A DNA stretch of 64,000 bases from Bacillota bacterium. GTDB taxonomy: Bacteria; Bacillota; Negativicutes; CTSoil-072. The notes beneath the pieces were generated by a model. That model made no database searches. It was not told the DNA's origin and was given only the letters and a program-made list of their open reading frames with translations. The translations under genes and the position numbers were made by a program. Numbering within the stretch: position 1 is the first letter of the stretch; each line of letters starts with the position of its first letter. The DNA lies in assembly GCA_017889545.1 (NCBI GenBank), contig JAGFZV010000004.1, positions 1 to 64,000 on the forward strand, in the 5' to 3' direction. Positions 2,504 to 45,077 of this stretch are shown in pieces.

Positions 2504-4891
2504 TTGTCAACTCTCAAAACTTATTTGGATGGAACCCCCTTCAATGGTGTAATTGGACGAACAGTACCGGAATCCAGTCCTGCCTGGCCGGAACCTGTAA
2601 GGCCGCCTGATGGGGCGCCGAATGTGATTTTTTTGGTTTTAGACGATGTCGGCTATGGTCAACTGTCCTGTTTCGGTGGTTTGGTTGAGACCCCTGTCAT
2701 AAATAAAATAGCCGATAATGGACTGCGGTATACGAACATGCATACGGCGGCACTTTGCGCTCCTTCCCGGGGCTGCATCCTGACCGGACGGAACCATCAC
2801 AATCTTGGCCTGGCCTCAATTGGAGAAATGTCGACAGGCTACCCCGGCTACAATGGAATTCTGCCCTTTGACAGAGCAATGCTCGGTGAAATCCTTGTGC
2901 AGAAGGGCTATAGTACCTTTGCCGTTGGTAAATGGCACCTAACGCCGACGGAACACTCAACTGCTGCCGGACCCTATGACCGATGGCCGTTAGGCCGCGG
3001 TTTCGAGCGCTACTACGGCTTTTTGGGGGGAGAAACCAGCCAATGGTATCCGGAGCTCGTGTATGACAATCATTTTGTAGAACAGCCTGCTACACCAGAA
3101 GAAGGCTATCATCTCAGCATCGATTTAGCGGATAAAGCGATAGAGTTTATTCAGGATGCACATGTTAATGCACCGGATAAACCATTCTTCCTGTATTATT
3201 CAACGGGAGCCGGGCATGCGCCTCATCATGTACCGAAAGAGTGGGCGGATAAGTACAAAGGCAAATTCGACATGGGCTGGGATGAATACCGCAAGATTGT
3301 CCATGCCCGACAATTAGAAATGGGTATTATTCCTCCGGGAACCGAGTTATCTGCCCATGACCCGGATGTGCCGGTATGGGACAGCCTGTCGGCGGAAGAA
3401 AAGCGTCTGTATGCAAGAATGATGGAAGTCTACGCCGGGTTTGTCAGCTTCACGGATTACCATTTCGGCCGCGTCATCAGTTTCTTGGAAGCAACAGGCG
3501 AGATGGACAACACCTTGATCATTGTCATTTCGGATAATGGCGCCAGTGCGGAAGGCGGCCCTACCGGTTCCGTCAACTCGAATCTCTTTTATAACAACGT
3601 TCCGGAAGATTTGGAGACAAACTTGAAATTCATTGATGCGCTTGGCGGTCCTGAGACGAACAACCATTATGCCTGGGGGTGGGCGAATGCGGGCGACGCG
3701 CCTTTCCGGCGTTGGAAACGCGAAACCTACCGAGGCGGTACGACGGATCCGTGTATTGTGAGTTGGCCGAAGGTCATTACGGGCAGCGGCGAAATACGGA
3801 TGCAATATGGCCATGTGATTGATTTTGTACCTACGGTTTTGGAAGCAATCGGCGTGCAAGCGCCTGAGACCATCCGCGGCGTCACCCAAAAACCGTTCGA
3901 CGGAGTCAGCTTTGCCCATACTTTTAACCAAGCGGATGCGCCTACGCTCCATCATACCCAATATTTTGAGATATTCGGGCATCGCTCAATTTATCATGAC
4001 GGCTGGCGAGCAGTTTGCCCATGGCCTGGCCCGAGTTTGACGGAGGGCGCGAAGAAAAACCGGAAATTTGGTGATATTATTGATAATAAGATCCTCAGCG
4101 ATATGGAGGCCCATGACTGGGAATTGTACCATGTTGATGAAGATTATTCGGAAACCAAAAACTTGGCGGCCGAGCGTCCCGACAAATTAATTGAGATGAT
4201 TGGCCGTTGGTGGACAGAGGCAGGCAAAAACAATGTTCTCCCGATTGACAGCTCTACATTAGTAAGACTTTGTGCAGAACGTCCGACGATTGCCAGACCG
4301 CGCAGCAAAATGGTGTATTATCCGGGTGGTTCGCCGGTCCCATTTATTGCGGCACCCAAAGTTTATAACAAGCCGTTCAGCATCACGGCCGACGCTGTAA
4401 TCCCTCCGGGCGGCGCTGAGGGAATTTTGCTTTCCCATGGCGGAAGGGACGGTGGTTACACGTTCTTTGTGAAAGAGAAGAAGCTGCATTTTATTTACAA
4501 TTATCTGGGACGAGATATCTTCAAGCTAACTTCAAATGAAGAAATTCCGGAAGGCGAAGTTTTGCTGCGCTATGAATTCGAACCCACCGGCAAACCGAAT
4601 CCAGCAGAAGGGAAAGGTGTTCCTGCCAACGGACAGCTTTACATCAATGGGAAACTTGTGGCGGCCATCCAGATGCCGCATACCGTACCGACTCTTTTTC
4701 ATACCGTACCGACTCTTTTTGGCTCTGAGGGATTGACCTGCGGTTATGAAGGAGGATCGGAAGTTGCGCCGGATGAATACCGTGGAAGCTTTAAGTTTAC
4801 CGGGCTGCTTAAACAGGTTGAACTGGAAATTTCCGGGGAAATGCTTCCGGACACAGAAACTGATCTGATGATTGCGCTCAAACGACAGTAA
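2504..4891 (+). CDS. arylsulfatase / sulfatase family hydrolase
   Basis: VIFLVLDDVGYGQLSCFGG N-terminus and formylglycine motif LCAPSRGCILTGRNHH. Best start is TTG 2504, 8 nt after GGAGG. Confidence 0.9.
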   Translation: MSTLKTYLDGTPFNGVIGRTVPESSPAWPEPVRPPDGAPNVIFLVLDDVGYGQLSCFGGLVETPVINKIADNGLRYTNMHTAALCAPSRGCILTGRNHHNLGLASIGEMSTGYPGYNGILPFDRAMLGEILVQKGYSTFAVGKWHLTPTEHSTAAGPYDRWPLGRGFERYYGFLGGETSQWYPELVYDNHFVEQPATPEEGYHLSIDLADKAIEFIQDAHVNAPDKPFFLYYSTGAGHAPHHVPKEWADKYKGKFDMGWDEYRKIVHARQLEMGIIPPGTELSAHDPDVPVWDSLSAEEKRLYARMMEVYAGFVSFTDYHFGRVISFLEATGEMDNTLIIVISDNGASAEGGPTGSVNSNLFYNNVPEDLETNLKFIDALGGPETNNHYAWGWANAGDAPFRRWKRETYRGGTTDPCIVSWPKVITGSGEIRMQYGHVIDFVPTVLEAIGVQAPETIRGVTQKPFDGVSFAHTFNQADAPTLHHTQYFEIFGHRSIYHDGWRAVCPWPGPSLTEGAKKNRKFGDIIDNKILSDMEAHDWELYHVDEDYSETKNLAAERPDKLIEMIGRWWTEAGKNNVLPIDSSTLVRLCAERPTIARPRSKMVYYPGGSPVPFIAAPKVYNKPFSITADAVIPPGGAEGILLSHGGRDGGYTFFVKEKKLHFIYNYLGRDIFKLTSNEEIPEGEVLLRYEFEPTGKPNPAEGKGVPANGQLYINGKLVAAIQMPHTVPTLFHTVPTLFGSEGLTCGYEGGSEVAPDEYRGSFKFTGLLKQVELEISGEMLPDTETDLMIALKRQ
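4679..4720 (+). repeat. exact 21-bp in-frame tandem duplication (HTVPTLF x2) inside the sulfatase gene
   Basis: cataccgtaccgactcttttt occurs at 4679-4699 and again at 4700-4720. Confidence 0.95.
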
Positions 4892-32662: not shown

Positions 32663-34885
<2,223 letters not shown>

Positions 34886-35037: not shown

Positions 35038-35073
35038 TTGTGCTTACGCTATTTATTTCAAATTGCATATGTG

Positions 35074-35721
35074 TCACTTTTTGCTTTGGTCAACCGGCGT
35101 AGGAGGAGTGCTCAGAAGCAGAAGGTTTTCAATATCTGCTTTTAAAAGGGTCGCAGCCGTTGCAAGGTCGCCTTTTTCCAGGTAGTCAACGAAAGCTAGG
35201 TGTAAATCCATGGAGGCAGAATGTTTTTTCTGTGCGAAAAAGATCGTCTGGATGTTTAAAGCGTCTTCCAAGAGCTTATAGGCGTAATGGTTGCCATAAG
35301 CGGAGAATAATTTTAGATGAAATTGGCAATTGTAGTGCCAGTGAGACATGAAATCATTGGTTAGGCAGCTCATGTAGTTCACGCAGATGGTTCTCAGTTC
35401 TTTGATACTGGCTTCATCGATATAGCTACCATAACTTTCCAAGAAAGAACATTCCAAAGCGGAACGAAATTTAACAATTTCCAACAATTGTTTTCTGTTT
35501 GGCTGAAGAATTTTATATCCCTGACGGGGAATGCTGGATAGAATAAGGGTTCCGGTCAGCTGAGAAAGGGCTTCGCGTATGGGGGCTCGGCTAACATTAT
35601 ATTTTTCCATCAAAAATTTTTCAGTCAGGATGGTGTCGGTAGAATATACGCCATTGATAATATCAGAAAACAAAGCTTCATAAACTTGATCCTTTAATGT
35701 ATCTGGATTTTTTTTGTCCAT
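35074..35721 (-). CDS. GntR family transcriptional regulator (FCD type)
   Basis: LKDQVYEALFSDIINGVYSTDTILTEKFLMEKYNVSRAPIREALSQLTGTLILSSIPRQGYKI. Confidence 0.9.
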   Translation of the reverse strand: MDKKNPDTLKDQVYEALFSDIINGVYSTDTILTEKFLMEKYNVSRAPIREALSQLTGTLILSSIPRQGYKILQPNRKQLLEIVKFRSALECSFLESYGSYIDEASIKELRTICVNYMSCLTNDFMSHWHYNCQFHLKLFSAYGNHYAYKLLEDALNIQTIFFAQKKHSASMDLHLAFVDYLEKGDLATAATLLKADIENLLLLSTPPTPVDQSKK

Positions 35722-35935
35722 AGAATATCTCCCTAAGTAGATTGTTAAGTTATTATATATTGAAAAAAAAGGTTAGTCAATATGAGCGAAACATGAATTT
35801 CATGCATAATAAAGAAAAAATGCCAACGTGATCATATCACGAAATATCAAATATAGGCTAATTTGCCTCTGAATTACAATAATTATAGAAATAACGTACT
35901 AAAAAATGGTAATAAAATAAAATTTTCGAAATATA

Positions 35936-35964
35936 TTGACTGATATTATTAGTTGTGATATGAT
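35936..35964 (+). promoter_or_regulatory. candidate sigma-A promoter TTGACT-17-TATGAT with overlapping palindromic operator
   Basis: TTGACT 35936-35941, 17-nt spacer, TATGAT 35959-35964; GTGATATGATCA(G) at 35955-35967 matches 12 of 13 to the reverse complement of GTGATCATATCAC at 35828-35840. Confidence 0.6.
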
Positions 35965-36207
35965 CAGAGCAAATAAAACAGTATGAAATGGCAGGGAAAT
36001 TATACTGGTAATTGCTGCTAAAAAGCTAATAAATTAAGCAATATCGTGGTCATATTAGAATTGAGAAATTAAGTTAAATTTTATTGAAGAATAGTGATGT
36101 GCAAATGCTGAAAAATTTTGCAGTATAACCTGACAAACTTGAAAATGCAAAAATTAGGAAATCATAAACAGCTGTCAGTAAATTATGGAGAAAAGGAGAC
36201 AAAGAAC

Positions 36208-36714
36208 ATGATCGACAACAAAATTAGTATCAAAGGGGACCCGGTAGTAGACATTCAGAGAGGTGCAATTGGACATCGCGCAACCTGGACCGGTTTAACG
36301 TACACAAAGGCCAGAGAAGCAGGCAAGGCCGAAGAGACAGAAAAATTCATCCGGGAAGCAGTTGCAGAAACCGCTAAGGTTCAGGCCGCTGCAATCAAAT
36401 CCAAATGCCAGGATCCGGAGAGCGTTGCATGTTTTGCCGAAACATTTCTCAATCCGAACGTCGCAAAGACGTTTGAAATTGAATTCAAGACCAAAACCGC
36501 AGACAGAGTGGATCTGGCATTTCATCATTGCCCACTGTTGAAAGCATGGCAGGATCTAGGCTTTGATGATGAAACCTGTGAAAAATTATGCGACATGGCG
36601 ATGGACGGAGACAGAGGCATTGCCGCAGCCATGGGCTATGAATTCTACTTGGGAGATACCATTGCCAACGGCTTTAAGACCTGTCAGATGGCCTATTTCA
36701 AAAAAGGCAAATAA
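36208..36714 (+). CDS. L-2-amino-thiazoline-4-carboxylic acid (ATC) hydrolase family-like protein, copy 1
   Basis: 168 aa MIDNKISIKGDPVVDIQRGAIGHRATW...; RBS aaaaggag; track start 36118 is probably too far upstream. Family assignment is from recollection. Confidence 0.6.
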   Translation: MIDNKISIKGDPVVDIQRGAIGHRATWTGLTYTKAREAGKAEETEKFIREAVAETAKVQAAAIKSKCQDPESVACFAETFLNPNVAKTFEIEFKTKTADRVDLAFHHCPLLKAWQDLGFDDETCEKLCDMAMDGDRGIAAAMGYEFYLGDTIANGFKTCQMAYFKKGK

Positions 36715-36766
36715 TTAAGCGTTCGTCAAAAATAATTAAAATTATGGAGAAAAGGAGACAAAGAAC

Positions 36767-37273
36767 ATGATCGACAACAAAATTAGTATCAAAGGGGACC
36801 CGGTAGTAGACATTCAGAGAGGTGCAATCGGACATCGCGCAACCTGGACCGGTTTAACGTACACAAAGGCCAGAGAAGCAGGGAAGGCCGAAGAAACAGA
36901 AAAATTCATCCGTGAAGCAGTTGCAGAAACTGCTAAGGTTCAGGCGGCTGCAATCAAATCCAAATGCCAGGATCCGGAGAGTGTTGCATGCTTTGCGGAA
37001 ACTTTCCTCAATCCGAATGTTGCAAAGACGTTTGAAATTGAATTCAAGACCAAAACCGCAGACAGAGTGGACCTGGCATTTCATCATTGCCCATTGTTGA
37101 AAGCATGGCAGGATTTAGGCTTTGATGATGCAACCTGTGAAAAATTATGCGACATGGCGATGGACGGAGACCGAGGCATTGCCGCAGCCATGGGCTATGA
37201 ATTCTACTTGGGAGATACCATTGCGAACGGCTTCAAGACCTGTCAGATGGCCTATTTCAAAAAAGGCAAATAA
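36767..37273 (+). CDS. ATC hydrolase family-like protein, copy 2 (near-identical paralog)
   Basis: 168 aa, differs from copy 1 at one residue (DDETCEK vs DDATCEK); same leader sequence attatggagaaaaggagacaaagaac. Confidence 0.6.
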   Translation: MIDNKISIKGDPVVDIQRGAIGHRATWTGLTYTKAREAGKAEETEKFIREAVAETAKVQAAAIKSKCQDPESVACFAETFLNPNVAKTFEIEFKTKTADRVDLAFHHCPLLKAWQDLGFDDATCEKLCDMAMDGDRGIAAAMGYEFYLGDTIANGFKTCQMAYFKKGK

Positions 37274-37300
37274 TTAAGCAGTGAAAAGGAGACCTCTTTA

Positions 37301-38566
37301 ATGGATAAAGTGCAATACGATAATTATATTACGATATTAAAGGGAGAACTTATTACGGCTATGGGCTGCACGGAACCGATTGCCATTTCCTTTACCGCTG
37401 CTAAGGCACGAGAGGTCCTTGGGCAGATGCCGGAACGGATGGTTATCCGCTGCAGCGGCAATATTATTAAAAATGTGAAGGGTGTTGTAGTGCCTAATTC
37501 TGGCGGTCAGAAGGGCGTGGAAGTGGCAGCCATCCTAGGCGTTGTCGCAGGGAAATCGGAACTGGAGCTTGAGGTCATCAGCCAGGTAAAACAGGAAGAC
37601 ATTGATCAGACCAAAACGTTATACAGTCAGGGTATCTGCAGTTGTGAGCTGGAAGAAGGAGAAGAAAATCTTTTCATTCGCGCAGAGCTAGCAGCTGGAT
37701 TGGAAACGGCAGCGGTGGAAGTGAGAACCAAGCACAACCACATTGCCAGAATAGAAAAAAATGGTCAGGTGATATTTGAGCAGCCAGATCTTTCAATTGG
37801 CGAGTCTGGGGATAAGTCAAAGCTCAATATCGAGGACATACTCGATTTTGCTAACGAAGTAAAGTTGGATGATATAAGAGAAATCATCAGCCGGCAGATT
37901 AAGTACAACTCCGCCATATCAGCAGAAGGCCTGACGAATAAATGGGGTGCCCAGGTTGGACAGACTTTCCTGAATTTTGGCAGCAATGATGTAAGGATTA
38001 GAGCAAGAGCAGCAGCAGCAGCAGGATCTGATGCGCGAATGAATGGTTGTGCCCTCCCGGTAGTCATCAATTCCGGAAGCGGCAATCAGGGGATCACATG
38101 TACTATGCCGGTTGTTGTTTATGCTGAAGAGATGGGAGTAGATGAGGATACCCTTTATAGGGCGCTTGTTCTGACCAACCTCCTGTCCCTTCATCAGAAA
38201 CGCTATATCGGGAACCTGTCCGCTTACTGTGGAGCCGTATCCGCTGGGGCGGCTGCAGCTTGCGGGATTGCTTATCTGAATGGCGCCGATTATGATGTCA
38301 TTGGAAAGACCATCATCAATTCCTTGGGAAATGTGGGCGGCATTATATGCGATGGAGCAAAGGCATCTTGTGCGGCGAAAATCTCCAGTGCAGTAGATGC
38401 TGGTATTATGGGCTATGAAATGGCAAAACGTGATTTGTTCTTTCCCTTCGGCGAAGGTCTTGTAGAACAGGATTACGAACAGACAATTCGTAATATCGGC
38501 CGTATGGGCTACTATGGCATGAAATCCACCGACGTAGAAATCCTTAATATTATGATCGGTAAGTAA
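37301..38566 (+). CDS. L-serine dehydratase alpha-like / L-cysteine desulfidase family (UPF0597) protein
   Basis: LITAMGCTEPIAISFTAAKAREVLG; VVVPNSGGQKGVEVAAILGVVAG; INSGSGNQGITCTMPVVVYA. Confidence 0.85.
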   Translation: MDKVQYDNYITILKGELITAMGCTEPIAISFTAAKAREVLGQMPERMVIRCSGNIIKNVKGVVVPNSGGQKGVEVAAILGVVAGKSELELEVISQVKQEDIDQTKTLYSQGICSCELEEGEENLFIRAELAAGLETAAVEVRTKHNHIARIEKNGQVIFEQPDLSIGESGDKSKLNIEDILDFANEVKLDDIREIISRQIKYNSAISAEGLTNKWGAQVGQTFLNFGSNDVRIRARAAAAAGSDARMNGCALPVVINSGSGNQGITCTMPVVVYAEEMGVDEDTLYRALVLTNLLSLHQKRYIGNLSAYCGAVSAGAAAACGIAYLNGADYDVIGKTIINSLGNVGGIICDGAKASCAAKISSAVDAGIMGYEMAKRDLFFPFGEGLVEQDYEQTIRNIGRMGYYGMKSTDVEILNIMIGK

Positions 38567-38689
38567 TTTCCTATCGTGTGATAGGCAATACTTTCGGGGA
38601 AGTTTCGGGTATAATTTCAAGGGGTTTTAGTATTGGAATAATTAACGTGACTATATACAATCTAATAAAGTTATAGGAGGAAAGATCAT

Positions 38690-39943
38690 ATGAAAAAACG
38701 TTGGGTTGTTCTAGCCGTATCTTGGATCGTGTTTTTCGTGGCATTTCTCGATCGGGTGAATTTGTCAGTCGCTATGCCCTTAATATCTAAGGAATTCTCT
38801 TTATCCCCGGAACAGGTTGGATATTTATTTAGCGCCTTTTTTATCTCATATACTGTCTTCCAAATACCAGGCGGCTATTTGAGCGATAAAGTCGGGCCTA
38901 AAAAGGTGCTGCTTGTTGCTTTGGTATGGTGGTCGATTATGACCATGGCTACAGGGCTGGCGCGTTCGTTTTCTCAGTTTTTTATCGTACGTGTACTTTT
39001 TGGCATCGGGGAAGGTCTTCAGCCACCGTGCGCCTTCAAATTGAATAGCAACTGGTTTCCCAACCAGGAGCGGGCCACTGCGAATGCAATCTTCACTTCG
39101 GCCTGTTCCTTCGGACCTGCTATTGCGCCGTCAATCGCCGTAGCTATTATCGGCCTTTGGGGCTGGCATGCACTGTTCTATATTTTTGGTGGACTGGGTT
39201 TTATCATTCTTCCGTTACTGATCTTTTTCGTAAAAAATTCTCCGGAAGAGGATCCTACCATTTCGAAAGAGGAATTTAATTATATTAAGAAGGGGCAGGC
39301 AGAAATCGTTCAGACAGCATCAGATGAAACAAGTGTTGGCCTTATGAGCGTACTTAAGAACCGGAACATTTGCCTGCTGGCTCTTACTTACTTTGGCTTT
39401 ATGTGTGCATTCTTTGGTTTGTTATCCTGGTTGCCCAGTTATTTAGTAAAAGCGCGTGGCTTCGAAATGGTGAAAATGGGTATCTTCTCAGGGTTGCCGT
39501 TCTTAGCGCTGGGTATTGCCCAACCGTTTGGCGGCTGGCTTTCCGATAAAGTATTTAATGGTCGCCGTAAAATCCAGGCAATTCTGGTGAATTTAGCAGC
39601 TGGGCCGATGCTTTATGGCGTGGTTGCAGCTCCAACGGAAAATGTTGCTATGGCACTTCTGGTTTGTACAGGATTTTTAGTAGGCATGGCATTTGGTCCT
39701 TTGTGGGCTATGCCGATGGAATCGGTGAAACGCAGCTATGTCGGTATGGCGACCGGCGTAATGAATGCCGGTGGCAGTATAGGTGGTATCTTATCGCCGA
39801 TTATCATTGGATACTTGGTGGGCATGTCTGGGTATAATGCTGCATTCGTCTTTATGGGTGGCGCATTAGTGTTCACCGCGATAGTTGCCTCCTTTGTTAA
39901 ATTACCGCCGAAAGAGAATGCCCGCATTGCTTCCGCGTCCTGA
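38690..39943 (+). CDS. MFS transporter (ACS-like)
   Basis: VAFLDRVNLSVAMPLISKEFSLSPEQVGYLFSAFFISYTVFQIPGGYLSDKVGPKKVL. Confidence 0.88.
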   Translation: MKKRWVVLAVSWIVFFVAFLDRVNLSVAMPLISKEFSLSPEQVGYLFSAFFISYTVFQIPGGYLSDKVGPKKVLLVALVWWSIMTMATGLARSFSQFFIVRVLFGIGEGLQPPCAFKLNSNWFPNQERATANAIFTSACSFGPAIAPSIAVAIIGLWGWHALFYIFGGLGFIILPLLIFFVKNSPEEDPTISKEEFNYIKKGQAEIVQTASDETSVGLMSVLKNRNICLLALTYFGFMCAFFGLLSWLPSYLVKARGFEMVKMGIFSGLPFLALGIAQPFGGWLSDKVFNGRRKIQAILVNLAAGPMLYGVVAAPTENVAMALLVCTGFLVGMAFGPLWAMPMESVKRSYVGMATGVMNAGGSIGGILSPIIIGYLVGMSGYNAAFVFMGGALVFTAIVASFVKLPPKENARIASAS

Positions 39944-40054
39944 AAATAATCATGCACGAAAGTTTTTCGGGCAAAAGAGAAGCGAACCGGCTTAATGGAT
40001 GAAAGCGTAGGGGAAATAACCGTCTTTTTCGCTAGACCGGTCTAAACAAAATTT

Positions 40055-40112
40055 GAATAAATAAAACTGAGCGCCCGCAATTTAAACTTTGGGCGCTCAG
40101 TTTTATTTATTC
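40055..40112. terminator. bidirectional terminator, perfect 22-bp stem
   Basis: GAATAAATAAAACTGAGCGCCC (40055-40076) / GGGCGCTCAGTTTTATTTATTC (40091-40112). Confidence 0.85.
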
Positions 40113-40299
40113 TTCCGAAATCAAACGACATAATGAAGCCCCATATAAGCAAGAGGAAATTTAATATTTGCAAAACGGTCGTCAGAAGTGTTCGTATATC
40201 TTTCTATTGAACAAGGGCTGATGTAAAGAGGGATGGTAATGTTCCCAATAATCGAATACAATTAGTATAGTAATGTTTTATCGGAATGGGGGAGGCCAA

Positions 40300-41223
40300 A
40301 TGAGATTAAACCAATTTGAGTTTTTAGTAGCTTTAAAAAGGTATAAATCTTTTTCTAAAGTCTCGAAGGCTCTTTTAATCTCACAACCTTCTATCAGCAG
40401 AGCAATAAAAGAATTAGAAGAGGAATTAGGTTATATTGTTCTAAAACGAGGACAAAACGGTATAGAATTTACGCCTAAGGGTGAAATGCTAGTGGAAAAA
40501 GCGGAAAACATTATGGGAGAGGTTTATAGCATAAGGGATATTAATTCTGTAATCGAAAGCGATCTAAAGTGCGAAGTCCGGATCGGAACATCTTCCCACT
40601 TTTGCAATGCAGTTGTATTAGATGTTCTCGTGGGATTGAAAGCAGAGTATCCAAAATTGGTTATTAAGCTTATTAACAGTGATGTTAGGCGTGTTATTGA
40701 AGAAATTGCGGCGAAAGACCTGGATGTAGGGATTATTCAAATTAATACCGTTGATGAAAGTCAAATATCAACTGAAATTGAAAAAAACACGTTGACTTTT
40801 ACTGAAATATTTAATGAAGAGATGTGCTTTATTGTAGGACAAAATCACCCTTTATTAAAAAAAGAAAAAGTAAGTATGGTGGAAATTTTGCAGTTCCCTT
40901 TTGTAACTGCAAAAAATTCAACAATTGAATTACTTGCGAATTTTTTTCAAAATTACGGTTATGATAAGGGTTTCATACAAATAAATGATATTGCCAATCT
41001 GAGAAGATTCATTGGGGCGTCTAATTCCGTCGCTGTAATATCCAGGAGTGCTGCTCTTAAAAGTAATACTATTTTTAAAGATAATCTGGTTTCGCTATCA
41101 ATTTCGGATTTTGAGTGGCGCTGCCGAACAGGATGGATTCATAAAAGGAATGCACTTTCCAGCACGGAGGGAATAATTATAAAGGAGCTGACTGATCGTT
41201 GTCGTCAATATAACCAAAAATAG
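40300..41223 (+). CDS. LysR family transcriptional regulator
   Basis: MRLNQFEFLVALKRYKSFSKVSKALLISQPSISRAIKELEEELGYIVLKRGQNGIEFTPKGEMLVEKAENI. Confidence 0.93.
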   Translation: MRLNQFEFLVALKRYKSFSKVSKALLISQPSISRAIKELEEELGYIVLKRGQNGIEFTPKGEMLVEKAENIMGEVYSIRDINSVIESDLKCEVRIGTSSHFCNAVVLDVLVGLKAEYPKLVIKLINSDVRRVIEEIAAKDLDVGIIQINTVDESQISTEIEKNTLTFTEIFNEEMCFIVGQNHPLLKKEKVSMVEILQFPFVTAKNSTIELLANFFQNYGYDKGFIQINDIANLRRFIGASNSVAVISRSAALKSNTIFKDNLVSLSISDFEWRCRTGWIHKRNALSSTEGIIIKELTDRCRQYNQK

Positions 41224-41283
41224 TTTTCAGAGGTAGCTGGAATTTGCCAGGGACTCTGAATTTTCACCCCGTTTTTTATAATG

Positions 41284-41336
41284 AAATCCGCTCCCGGTTA
41301 CTAACGTAATGTTAGCGAATGGAAGCGGATTTTTAT
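41284..41336 (+). terminator. intrinsic terminator after LysR gene
   Basis: AAATCCGCTccc...ggAAGCGGATTTTTATT. Confidence 0.65.
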
Positions 41337-41514
41337 TATTGGTCCATTGTTTTTAAATTGATTGATTTTATTGCTGTTAATAATAACTGATTAGGTTATA
41401 CGCTGCGGTAATAGATCATATTTGTTATTGGTATTTTACTCTCATGGTTTGGAATGATAAGCTTATTGTGAGAATTGTCACAATATGAATTTTAATGATA
41501 TAGGAGGGACTGCT

Positions 41515-41772
41515 ATGCCACCAGTAATTGACAAGGCGAAATGTATTAAATGTGAAATATGTGCACAAATTTGCCCGTTGGATGTTATTCGAGTTGAAAA
41601 AAAAGATCAAGAAAGGGAAATTGTAGTCAAGTATCCTTATGAATGCTGGCACTGTAGAGCTTGTATCAAGGAGTGTTCATCCAATGCCATTACAATGAGA
41701 TATCCATTATCTCACATGATGTTTTATATGGATGTGCCAACTGCAGATAGGAGTGATTGCAAATGCAAGTAA
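41515..41772 (+). CDS. 4Fe-4S ferredoxin, AprB-like
   Basis: MPPVIDKAKCIKCEICAQICPLDVIRVE...YPYECWHCRACIKECSSNAITMRYPLSHMMFYM. Confidence 0.85.
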   Translation: MPPVIDKAKCIKCEICAQICPLDVIRVEKKDQEREIVVKYPYECWHCRACIKECSSNAITMRYPLSHMMFYMDVPTADRSDCKCK

Positions 41773-43439
41773 AGATAAGAAAAGAAATTATTAAAACAGA
41801 ATTGTTAATTATTGGCGGCGGTATCGCCGGCTTGCAGGCCGCTATTACCGCTGGGCAAGAGGGTACTTCTGTTATTGTTGCGGAAAAAGCGGATACTCGT
41901 CGGTCTGGCAGCGGCGCGAATGGAAATGACCATTATATGTGCTATATTCCTGAATGTCATGGAGATGATTTCAAACGAGTGATTAGCGAGATTAATGAAG
42001 GGATGGAAGGAGGACCATGGCAGGATCAAATCATGTTGCGTAAAATGATGAAAAGATCCTATGGCATTATTCAAAAATGGGAATCTTACGGCATCGATAT
42101 GAGACCAACCGGCAAATGGGTATTTGAAGGCCATGCAATGCCGGGTCGGCAGAGATATCATCTAAAGTATGATGGTCAAAATCAAAAAGCGGTTTTAACG
42201 CAGAAAGCGTTAGAAAACGGCGCACAAATAATGAATAAAGTCTTTATCAACGAAGTACTTGTAAACGAAGAGGGCAGAGCTGTTGGAGCGATCGGCTTTA
42301 GTCTGGCTGAAGATGATTCGGAAGTCATCATTTTTCAAGCGAAAGCAGTTTTGCTGGCAACGGCTCAAGCGATGAGAATGTATCCTCATGGGAACCCTAC
42401 TTTTATTTTTAATACTCATAGTTGTCCGGCTGCTGCCGGAGGAGCTGCTATTGGATACCGGGCAGGGGCTAGGTTGGTTAATTTAGATGTTCCGTACATC
42501 CATGCTGGAGTCAAAGGTTTTGCTCGTTCCGGTAAGGCGACCTGGATTGGCGTCCTATCTGATATTCATGGCAAGCCGGTAGGCCCTTTTTTGACCAAAC
42601 CGAATCGAGAAACTGGCGATGCAATGATGGATATCTGGCCTGGTATTTTTGGTGAGCGGCTCGATAATGGGACAGGTCCAACTTATATGAATTGTACCGA
42701 ACTTAGCGAAGAAGATCTAAAGTATCAGGAAAAAGCCTTTGAAAGTGAAGGTATTGATTCTATAACGGAATATTGTGAACAGCGCGGGATTGATCTGCGT
42801 AAAAGCATGATTGAATTTGGTACTTATGACTATTCCTTGGCCCAGAGAGGTATCGATATTAATTTAGATGGAATGACTACGGTTCAAGGTCTTTATGCAG
42901 CAGGAATTTGCTGCGGGAATGTTCGAGGAAATATTACGAATGCATCTGTCTGGGGTGACGTCGTTGGGGAGCACTCAAGTGAATACGTGAAACAGGTAGA
43001 AGAATTTGATATAAGTGAGCATCCCCTTATTAAAGAAAAAATTGATTTCTACATGGAACTAATGACAAAAAAAATCGGGGCCCATTGGCTGGAAGTTAAC
43101 TCTACGCTGCAACGGATTATGAATGATTATGTTGGCTTAAAAGTTCGCTCAGAAACGCTTTTAACGGCTGGAATAAAGTATCTTGCTGATTTGAAGCGGT
43201 ATTCAGTTTCGGAGCTGAAATGTGAAAATTCGCATGAATTGATGCGAACTCTCGAAGTTTTGGATTTAATAGATTTAGCCGAAGCGGTAGCTTTAACCGC
43301 GAAAAATCGTCAAGAAACACGAGGTAATCATAAGCGCGTAGACTTTACTTATACTAATCCATTGTTAAATGATAAATTTCAAACGATTGAAAAAACCAAA
43401 GACGGTATAAAAATGGCATTTAGGGATAAAGAAAAATAG
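41763..43439 (+). CDS. FAD-dependent oxidoreductase, AprA/fumarate reductase flavoprotein-like
   Basis: TELLIIGGGIAGLQAAITAGQEGTSVIVAEKADTRRSGSGANGNDHYMCYIPE; GLYAAGICCGNVRGNITNASVWGDVVGEH. Confidence 0.85.
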   Translation: MQVKIRKEIIKTELLIIGGGIAGLQAAITAGQEGTSVIVAEKADTRRSGSGANGNDHYMCYIPECHGDDFKRVISEINEGMEGGPWQDQIMLRKMMKRSYGIIQKWESYGIDMRPTGKWVFEGHAMPGRQRYHLKYDGQNQKAVLTQKALENGAQIMNKVFINEVLVNEEGRAVGAIGFSLAEDDSEVIIFQAKAVLLATAQAMRMYPHGNPTFIFNTHSCPAAAGGAAIGYRAGARLVNLDVPYIHAGVKGFARSGKATWIGVLSDIHGKPVGPFLTKPNRETGDAMMDIWPGIFGERLDNGTGPTYMNCTELSEEDLKYQEKAFESEGIDSITEYCEQRGIDLRKSMIEFGTYDYSLAQRGIDINLDGMTTVQGLYAAGICCGNVRGNITNASVWGDVVGEHSSEYVKQVEEFDISEHPLIKEKIDFYMELMTKKIGAHWLEVNSTLQRIMNDYVGLKVRSETLLTAGIKYLADLKRYSVSELKCENSHELMRTLEVLDLIDLAEAVALTAKNRQETRGNHKRVDFTYTNPLLNDKFQTIEKTKDGIKMAFRDKEK

Positions 43440-43595
43440 GTTAAGTGATGCATACATTTACCGGATAAAAGTACGTGCAGTTGATTAAGCCTCCTAGACT
43501 TCCGTTTTAGTGCAATAGTCTGGGAGGTGAGAAATCTTTTGGAATTTAGCATGGAGCAATATTGAATAAATTATTAAGCAACGGAGGTATCAGGC

Positions 43596-45077
43596 ATGAG
43601 TGTTCCAGCCAAGGCCACTACTTCATGGTGTACTAATGGAGATTTAATGTATTACATTCATTCATGTATTTGCATTGCAATAATGTTTGGGTTCGGTTTT
43701 CTTGCTCCTGTTGAACCGCTGACTGTTATGGGGATGAAGATAATCGGGATTTTTTTAGGACTTTTATATGGGTGGATGTTTGTGGGTTTAATCTGGCCTA
43801 GTTTGATAGGGTTGCTTGCCTTGCCACTATGCGGTTACATGACGGCCAAACAAATGCTTGCTGTAAGCTTTGGTGATAATGTAGTAATGATGATGTTTTT
43901 CATCTTTATTTTTTCCGCGATTATTGAAGAATGCGGACTATCCAGATTTATTTCGTTATGGTTTATAACCAGGAAATCAGTGATGGGAAAACCTTGGCTG
44001 TTTAGCTTTGTATTTTTAGGGTCTGTATATCTTCTAGGGGCTTTAACCAGTTCATCGCCAGCAATTATTATCGGCTGGAGTATTTTATATGGAATTTGCG
44101 GAGAACTTGGTTTCAAAAAAGGGGATAAATATCCGATAATGATGGTATTTGGAATCGTTTTTGCGGCACAAATGGGGATGTCGCTTATGCCATTTAAGCA
44201 AGTGCCATTGGTTTCATTAGGCGCCTACGAAAAAATGGCAGGAACGACGATTGATTATTTAACATATATGCTTATTTCGGGTGTAGTTGGCATATTGAGT
44301 ATGGTAATACTTGTTTTTATTGGCAAGTATATTTTTAAGCCGGATGTTGAGCCGCTAAGAAAGATGAATTTGCAAGTTTTTGATGTTAAGTCCGGGCTTG
44401 TATTAAACAAGATACAGAAAGTGGTTATGTTTTTCTTATTGCTTCTCATTTTTCTTTTGATTGTGCCTAGTGTATTGCCTAAAACCATGTGGATAAGCAA
44501 AATTTTGTCCACTATTAGTGGAACTGGTGTAGTTATTCTTTTAGTAAGCATTATGTGCTTTTTAAAAGTAGATGGAAAGCCGCTGATGAATTTTAAAAAA
44601 GCTGAAAACACAGGGGTAACATGGGGGATTGTATTATTACTTGCGGCTGTTCAGCCTGTGACGGAAGCATTAACTAGTAAGGCCACAGGATTTAATCCTT
44701 TTGTAATTAGTATTCTGGATCCTGTTTTTGGTGGAACATCAGCATTATTTTTTCTCTTGTTTATGGGTGTTGTTTCAATATTATTAACGAATTTCTGTAA
44801 TAACGGAGCTGTTGCTGTTGCGCTCATGCCGATCGCATATACTTATTCTCAGGCGATGGGTCTGCATCCAGGCATCATCGCGATCATTATTACGCTGGGT
44901 GTCCATATCGCATTTATGACACCGGCTGCCAGTGCCAGTTCCGCCTTGTTACATGGTAATAACGAGTGGATAAATACCAAATCAATATTAAAGATTGGCT
45001 CATATATGTTAGTTGTATCATATGTTTTGATCATTGGCATTAGCCTGATTTTAGGGAAATTAATGTTTAATTATTAG
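43596..45077 (+). CDS. SLC13/DASS-like anion permease
   Basis: About 12 hydrophobic helices; FLGSVYLLGALTSSSPAIIIGWSILY; GVHIAFMTPAASASSALLHGNNEW. Confidence 0.75.
   Translation: MSVPAKATTSWCTNGDLMYYIHSCICIAIMFGFGFLAPVEPLTVMGMKIIGIFLGLLYGWMFVGLIWPSLIGLLALPLCGYMTAKQMLAVSFGDNVVMMMFFIFIFSAIIEECGLSRFISLWFITRKSVMGKPWLFSFVFLGSVYLLGALTSSSPAIIIGWSILYGICGELGFKKGDKYPIMMVFGIVFAAQMGMSLMPFKQVPLVSLGAYEKMAGTTIDYLTYMLISGVVGILSMVILVFIGKYIFKPDVEPLRKMNLQVFDVKSGLVLNKIQKVVMFFLLLLIFLLIVPSVLPKTMWISKILSTISGTGVVILLVSIMCFLKVDGKPLMNFKKAENTGVTWGIVLLLAAVQPVTEALTSKATGFNPFVISILDPVFGGTSALFFLLFMGVVSILLTNFCNNGAVAVALMPIAYTYSQAMGLHPGIIAIIITLGVHIAFMTPAASASSALLHGNNEWINTKSILKIGSYMLVVSYVLIIGISLILGKLMFNY

What the first reader, a model, noticed from the sequence alone, without database searches (positions are those of the whole stretch)
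36180..37279. Tandem duplication of an ATC-hydrolase-like gene under strong purifying selection
Two 541-bp units (offset 559 bp) carry 168-aa ORFs. By hand count there are about 20 nucleotide differences, and only one changes an amino acid (E/A in DD[E/A]TCEK). The duplication includes the identical RBS leader. Maintenance of near-identical proteins despite synonymous drift implies selection on protein sequence, through dosage or a homomeric/heteromeric complex.
Basis: seen in the sequence. Interest (0 to 1): 0.6.

Follow-up and report, generated by a model that had tools for sequence, protein, structure and literature searches.

The report
Duplicated gene in a cysteine-breakdown operon
A bacterium of the class Negativicutes carries two side-by-side, almost identical copies of a small gene that its relatives have once, at the head of an operon that probably imports and breaks down a cysteine-like compound; this looks like an ordinary gene duplication with both copies still working, not a new kind of system.

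Summary
Two 541-bp units (36180-36720, 36739-37279; offset 559 bp, 18-bp spacer) carry 168-aa ORFs that differ at exactly 20 nucleotides: 19 synonymous, 1 replacement (E122A). Pairwise dN/dS is 0.012-0.026. Purifying selection is real, but it is close to the norm for the family: single-copy orthologue pairs run from 27:3 and 7:0 (synonymous:replacement) upward. E/A at position 122 also varies among single-copy orthologues. The genome has only these two copies. The 23 other Negativicutes genomes with a close orthologue (60-83% identity) have one each. The gene heads a conserved cassette: divergent GntR/FCD regulator | ATC, ATC, cyuA (L-cysteine desulfidase, catalytic and cluster residues intact), MFS transporter. 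The cassette has probably moved between families: dS is 0.4-1.1 where gyrB is saturated. The predicted fold (pLDDT 97) is V4R/Bet3/MopR-like with three invariant cysteines, supporting a published sequence link. A separate lineage (L050) carries two copies flanking cyuA with 98% protein identity and dS of about 0.9. Best reading: a lineage-specific tandem duplication, both copies functional and redundant (dosage), feeding a cysteine-type substrate to CyuA. There is no evidence for a heteromeric complex. An assembly error is unlikely but untested.

The parts
35074..35721 (-). GntR/FCD-family regulator, divergent from the operon
   Evidence: Pfam PF00392 and PF07729; orthologue at the same place in most cassettes
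35829..35839 (+). operator-like site TGATCATATCA (site 1), inferred GntR site
   Evidence: exact match; same motif in the equivalent region of many relatives
35936..35964 (+). sigma-70-like promoter TTGACT-17-TATGAT with extended -10, predicted
   Evidence: consensus match only, and the number of such matches in the region is no more than in shuffles
35956..35966 (-). operator-like site TGATCATATCA (site 2), overlapping the predicted -10
36180..36720 (+). repeat unit 1 (leader, RBS, CDS, 6 nt after the stop)
36208..36714 (+). ATC-hydrolase-like gene, copy 1 (168 aa, Glu122)
   Evidence: PF14196 E=1.5e-18
36721..36738 (+). unique spacer between the units
36739..37279 (+). repeat unit 2
36767..37273 (+). 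ATC-hydrolase-like gene, copy 2 (168 aa, Ala122)
   Evidence: PF14196 E=1e-17
37301..38566 (+). cyuA-like L-cysteine desulfidase (421 aa); C23, E25, C310, C350, C357 present
   Evidence: PF03313; PDB 9he0/9fsl L-cysteine desulfidase E=5e-21; residues compared with PMC12647591
38690..39943 (+). MFS transporter; closest NCBIfam model is the D-galactonate transporter subfamily, below its cut-off
   Evidence: PF07690, TIGR00893 271.8 of 395 bits

Best explanation
A lineage-specific tandem duplication of the first gene of a cysteine-type catabolic operon. SHOWN: two copies, 19:1 synonymous:replacement differences, single copy in all sampled close relatives, conserved cassette with cyuA, cassette divergence far below that of gyrB. 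INFERRED: (1) the operon was spread horizontally among Negativicutes and Clostridia; (2) after the duplication both copies stayed under the family's normal purifying selection while synonymous sites and the flanking spacer drifted; (3) the copies are biochemically redundant, so if the duplication has a benefit it is more protein (dosage); (4) the MFS protein imports a cysteine-derived carboxylate, the V4R-fold ATC-hydrolase-like protein opens or deconjugates it to cysteine or a cysteine derivative, CyuA cleaves cysteine to pyruvate, ammonia and sulfide, and the GntR protein represses until the substrate is present. Step confidence: (1) 0.85, (2) 0.85, (3) 0.55, (4) 0.4.
For: Differences and dN/dS. 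The synonymous changes are not clustered (P=0.64 for gap variance, 0.90 for the longest gap), so there is no sign of a partial conversion tract. Copy number among relatives: 28 of 381 Negativicutes have any match; the window genome is the only one with two close copies, the other 23 close orthologues being single, and none of the 72 named loci has a tandem near-identical pair. Position 122 is Ala in most and Glu in a few of 17 single-copy orthologues (12 against 5 by the base at the variable position). CyuA residues intact. Cassette dS 0.43-1.06 against the window genome versus saturated gyrB in the same genome pairs, and only the cassette aligns as DNA in most of these genomes. V4R/Bet3/MopR fold.
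Against: No sister species in the collection: the nearest held genomes share only the class, so the copies cannot be dated, and recombination with a diverged allele of the same species cannot be separated from drift after duplication. No S- or N-carbamoyl-cysteine amidohydrolase is in the cassette, which a literal ATC pathway would need. The pair's ratio (ML omega about 0.016) is at the low end of the orthologue range (0.037-0.30 by ML, plus one 7:0 pair).
Confidence: 0.6

Rival explanations
1. The second copy came from recombination or transfer of a diverged allele of the same cassette, so the synonymous differences are allelic divergence and not drift after duplication.
For: The cassette is horizontally transferred; synonymous-only allele differences would look the same. 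Outgroup states at the 20 sites are mixed, 11 favouring copy 2 and 9 copy 1.
Against: The copies are 96% identical to each other and at most about 85% identical to any other sequence found; leader and end of the unit are identical.
Confidence: 0.25
2. Assembly artefact: two strain alleles joined in tandem.
For: Draft assembly of 50 contigs; the pattern of differences resembles strain alleles; reads not available. Probable two-strain bins occur among this family's metagenome loci (L065/L066, L080/L081).
Against: Unique 18-bp spacer, sharp unit ends, a difference about every 25 nt with no identical run over about 90 bp, position inside a 141-kb contig, different sequence after each copy.
Confidence: 0.07
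3. The two proteins form an obligate mixed complex, or bind a shared partner such as CyuA, which freezes both sequences beyond the family norm.
For: The window pair and an independent pair in L050 (53 synonymous to 3 replacement codons) have lower ratios than orthologues at similar dS (L050 pair against L050b/L053, Fisher P=0.001); V4R/Bet3-fold proteins are often dimers (established knowledge).
Against: Only one or three mostly conservative differences, so no subunit specialisation; other orthologue pairs are nearly as constrained; single-copy operons are the rule in relatives.
Confidence: 0.12
4. The ATC-hydrolase-like protein is not an enzyme but a ligand-binding or sensor protein like other V4R-domain proteins. 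(This competes with step 4 of the best explanation, not with the duplication.)
For: Fold matches are to MopR/PoxR phenol sensors and Bet3; V4R domains are described as ligand-binding (PMC2253512); it often heads transporter operons.
Against: No fused output domain; invariant or near-invariant R, H, D and W residues beyond the three cysteines suggest an active site; the family is named after a reported ATC hydrolase activity (cited in PMC5847659).
Confidence: 0.35

Closest known systems
[quoted passage not shown]
   Same: Both copies score far above the curated cut-off (68.5 and 65.7 against 28.1 bits) over positions 7-145 of 145; three invariant cysteines
   Different: Activity untested; no racemase or carbamoyl-cysteine amidohydrolase beside it; sits with cyuA instead
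CyuA L-cysteine desulfidase operons (E. coli cyuA-cyuP; Methanococcus maripaludis CyuA)
   Same: CyuA with conserved Cys/Glu dyad and three cluster cysteines, next to a transporter and a regulator
   Different: An ATC-hydrolase-like gene is added; GntR/FCD regulator; MFS transporter
V4R / Bet3 / MopR-PoxR sensor fold
   Same: Predicted fold (Foldseek E 2e-4, TM about 0.54) and a three-cysteine cluster
   Different: About 10% sequence identity, no signalling domain attached
Recent tandem gene duplicates in bacteria
   Same: Head-to-tail, own RBS included, few replacements
   Different: Synonymous divergence (dS 0.15-0.21) is high for a tandem pair, which is usually either identical or quickly lost (general knowledge)

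Membership tests
PF14196 ATC_hydrolase | Profile match over the curated cut-off along the whole domain | tested here: met
PF14196 ATC_hydrolase | Cluster of three conserved Cys shared with the V4R domain (PMC5847659) | tested here: met
   C108, C128, C159 invariant in 60 sequences; that they bind a metal was not tested
PF14196 ATC_hydrolase | Hydrolysis of L-ATC | not testable with these tools
   needs an enzyme assay
V4R/Bet3-like fold | Structural similarity | tested here: met
   model pLDDT 97.1; best PDB matches TRAPPC3/Bet3 and MopR/PoxR, E 2e-4 to 5e-3, TM 0.5-0.57
CyuA L-cysteine desulfidase (gene 37301-38566) | Catalytic Cys23/Glu25 dyad, absent in SdaA/B serine dehydratases | tested here: met
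   C23 and E25
CyuA L-cysteine desulfidase (gene 37301-38566) | Three cluster cysteines (Cys287, 329, 336 of MmCyuA) | tested here: met
   C310, C350, C357 align with them
Recent tandem duplicates under purifying selection | Adjacent copies, mutual best matches, dN/dS well below 1 | tested here: met
Concerted evolution by gene conversion | Tracts of identity interrupted by divergent blocks | tested here: not met
   differences spread evenly, P=0.64; the identical first 62 coding nt are only weakly unusual (P=0.08)

The most novel reading that the evidence does not exclude
PF14196 proteins are dedicated, stoichiometry-limited partners of CyuA-type cysteine catabolism: a V4R-fold enzyme that prepares a still unknown cysteine conjugate. 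More than one lineage has independently kept two near-identical proteins with synonymously diverged genes per cassette, because the amount of this protein limits the pathway.
Probability: 0.2. Interest if true: 0.5.

Novelty: new member of a known kind. Interest (0 to 1): 0.27.

Why it matters
The duplication itself is ordinary. What surrounds it is useful: the conserved pairing of a poorly characterised V4R-fold 'ATC hydrolase' family with L-cysteine desulfidase, a transporter and a regulator in an apparently mobile cassette gives a concrete, testable substrate class for a family known mainly from one industrial reaction. The two-copy natural variant offers a dosage comparison.

Tried and rejected
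Partial gene conversion: rejected, the differences are not clustered. Neofunctionalisation through E122A: rejected, the site varies E/A among single-copy orthologues. Constraint peculiar to duplicates: not established; only two pairs are lower than orthologues, and some orthologue pairs are nearly as constrained. Treponema (L065/L066) and Lachnospiraceae (L080/L081) within-bin pairs looked like further paralogues but are syntenic over the whole locus, so probably strains. RNA family in the operon: none. A solved homologue of the ATC protein by sequence: none meaningful. The original paper on the Pseudomonas ATC genes (PMC127550) is not held.

Full report
OBSERVATION. The repeat is real and was described accurately. 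Reading at an offset of 559 bp gives sharp ends at 36180 and 36720, with 20 mismatches in 541 bp and a unique 18-bp spacer. Both ORFs (36208-36714, 36767-37273) encode 168 aa. Nineteen differences are synonymous and one changes Glu122 to Ala. Pairwise estimates: dN 0.0025-0.004, dS 0.15-0.21, ratio 0.012-0.026 by four methods. The genome has exactly two matching places and no other PF14196 member.

FAMILY. Both proteins match Pfam PF14196 ATC_hydrolase over nearly the whole domain, far above cut-off. No NCBIfam model matches. Among 60 homologues, R18, R24, F105, C108, W114, L127, C128, M132, G134, D135, A153 and C159 are invariant. AlphaFold gives a confident model (pLDDT 97, pTM 0.89). Its best matches in the PDB are TRAPPC3/Bet3 and the phenol-sensor domains of MopR and PoxR, the V4R fold. 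This agrees with a sequence-based proposal in PMC5847659 that a domain similar to HNOB, V4R and ATC hydrolase shares three conserved cysteines with the last two.

OPERON. Downstream lie a cyuA-like gene and an MFS transporter; a GntR/FCD regulator is divergent. The cyuA product matches the solved L-cysteine desulfidase and keeps the Cys/Glu dyad that distinguishes CyuA from serine dehydratases, plus the three strictly conserved cluster cysteines (PMC12647591). In nearly all close relatives the ATC gene immediately precedes cyuA, usually with the GntR gene and often the same MFS gene. Two exact TGATCATATCA sites lie between the GntR gene and ATC copy 1, one overlapping a predicted extended -10 promoter, and the same motif recurs at the equivalent place in many relatives. 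In more distant relatives the ATC gene heads Liv-type ABC transporter operons or sits next to peptide transporters and an M20 peptidase (the Liv and peptide-transporter names rest partly on reading the sequences). The constant theme is import and breakdown of an amino-acid-like compound. In Pseudomonas, ATC hydrolase yields S- or N-carbamoyl-cysteine (PMC10821248). A further amidohydrolase would be needed and is not in the cassette, so the true substrate may be another cysteine conjugate.

COPY NUMBER. In Negativicutes, 28 of 381 genomes have any homologue. Twenty-four of them, the window genome included, have a close orthologue (60% identity or more). Only the window genome has two close copies; the other 23 have one each. 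None of the 72 loci from named genomes holds a tandem near-identical pair. The duplication is therefore specific to this lineage as sampled. The nearest held genomes belong only to the same class, so no sister species could be compared.

SELECTION. The pair's 19:1 ratio was compared with single-copy orthologues: 15.5:7.5, 26:3, 27:3, 7:0, 31:6, 24:13 and 22:22. It lies at the constrained end but inside the range. Codon 122, the only replacement, carries the Ala-type base in 12 and the Glu-type base in 5 of 17 close single-copy orthologues. Differences are spread evenly, which argues against a partial conversion tract. The 34 identical non-coding bases are mildly unexpected (P about 0.005, or 0.03 leaving out the ribosome-binding site), consistent with constraint on translation initiation.

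PARALLEL. In L050 (Candidatus Paralachnospira avium) two ATC genes flank cyuA; they are 98.2% identical as proteins and 88% as DNA, with 53 synonymous and 3 replacement codons. The ratio is lower than for the comparable orthologue pair (Fisher P=0.001). With the window pair this hints that copies in one genome are held more tightly than orthologues across species, as expected if both serve the same partner and substrate. Two cases are not proof. Older, diverged neighbouring pairs also exist (L044: 38% identity; G709).

HORIZONTAL TRANSFER. The window's atc and cyuA genes are 81-90% identical in DNA to those of genomes from other families, with dS 0.43-1.06, while gyrB and recA of the same genome pairs are 69-75% identical with dS saturated or above 3. 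The same contrast holds among the other genomes (for example G313/G005: cassette dS about 0.33, gyrB saturated), so contamination of the window genome cannot explain it. In a 16-kb stretch the DNA match is confined to 35067-39948 in most of these genomes. The cassette has thus probably been exchanged between families; close orthologues also occur in Clostridium species (L020, L024).

CONCLUSION. A true, lineage-specific tandem duplication with both genes apparently functional and most likely redundant, in a mobile cysteine-type catabolic operon. Raw reads and sister strains are the missing evidence.

Noticed in passing
35074-39943: The GntR-ATC-cyuA-MFS cassette appears horizontally transferred between Negativicutes families: low synonymous divergence against saturated gyrB/recA.
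   Followed up: yes
L050:1722-2210 and 3989-4477: Two ATC genes flank cyuA in Candidatus Paralachnospira avium, 98% identical as proteins but with dS about 0.9: an independent parallel to the window pair.
   Followed up: partly
L044:3388-4453, L045:1244-2323, L129/L147 (G709:C13:6068-7050): Neighbouring, strongly diverged ATC pairs in other Firmicutes, possibly the older outcome of such duplications.
   Followed up: no
L046-L086 (many): ATC-hydrolase-like genes head Liv-type ABC transporter operons in Lachnospiraceae and Treponema.
   Followed up: partly
40053-40112: Inverted-repeat element just after the MFS gene (the stretch also matches its own reverse strand); similar sequence at the matching place beside the cassette in G313.
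   Followed up: no
40273-45077: LysR regulator, two-cluster ferredoxin, FAD_binding_2 flavoprotein (succinate dehydrogenase/fumarate reductase-like) and a DASS/CitMHS-type transporter in one cluster; substrate unknown.
   Followed up: no
32669-34885: Long ORF whose sequence looks like a KatG-type catalase-peroxidase (recognised by eye, no family search run).
   Followed up: no
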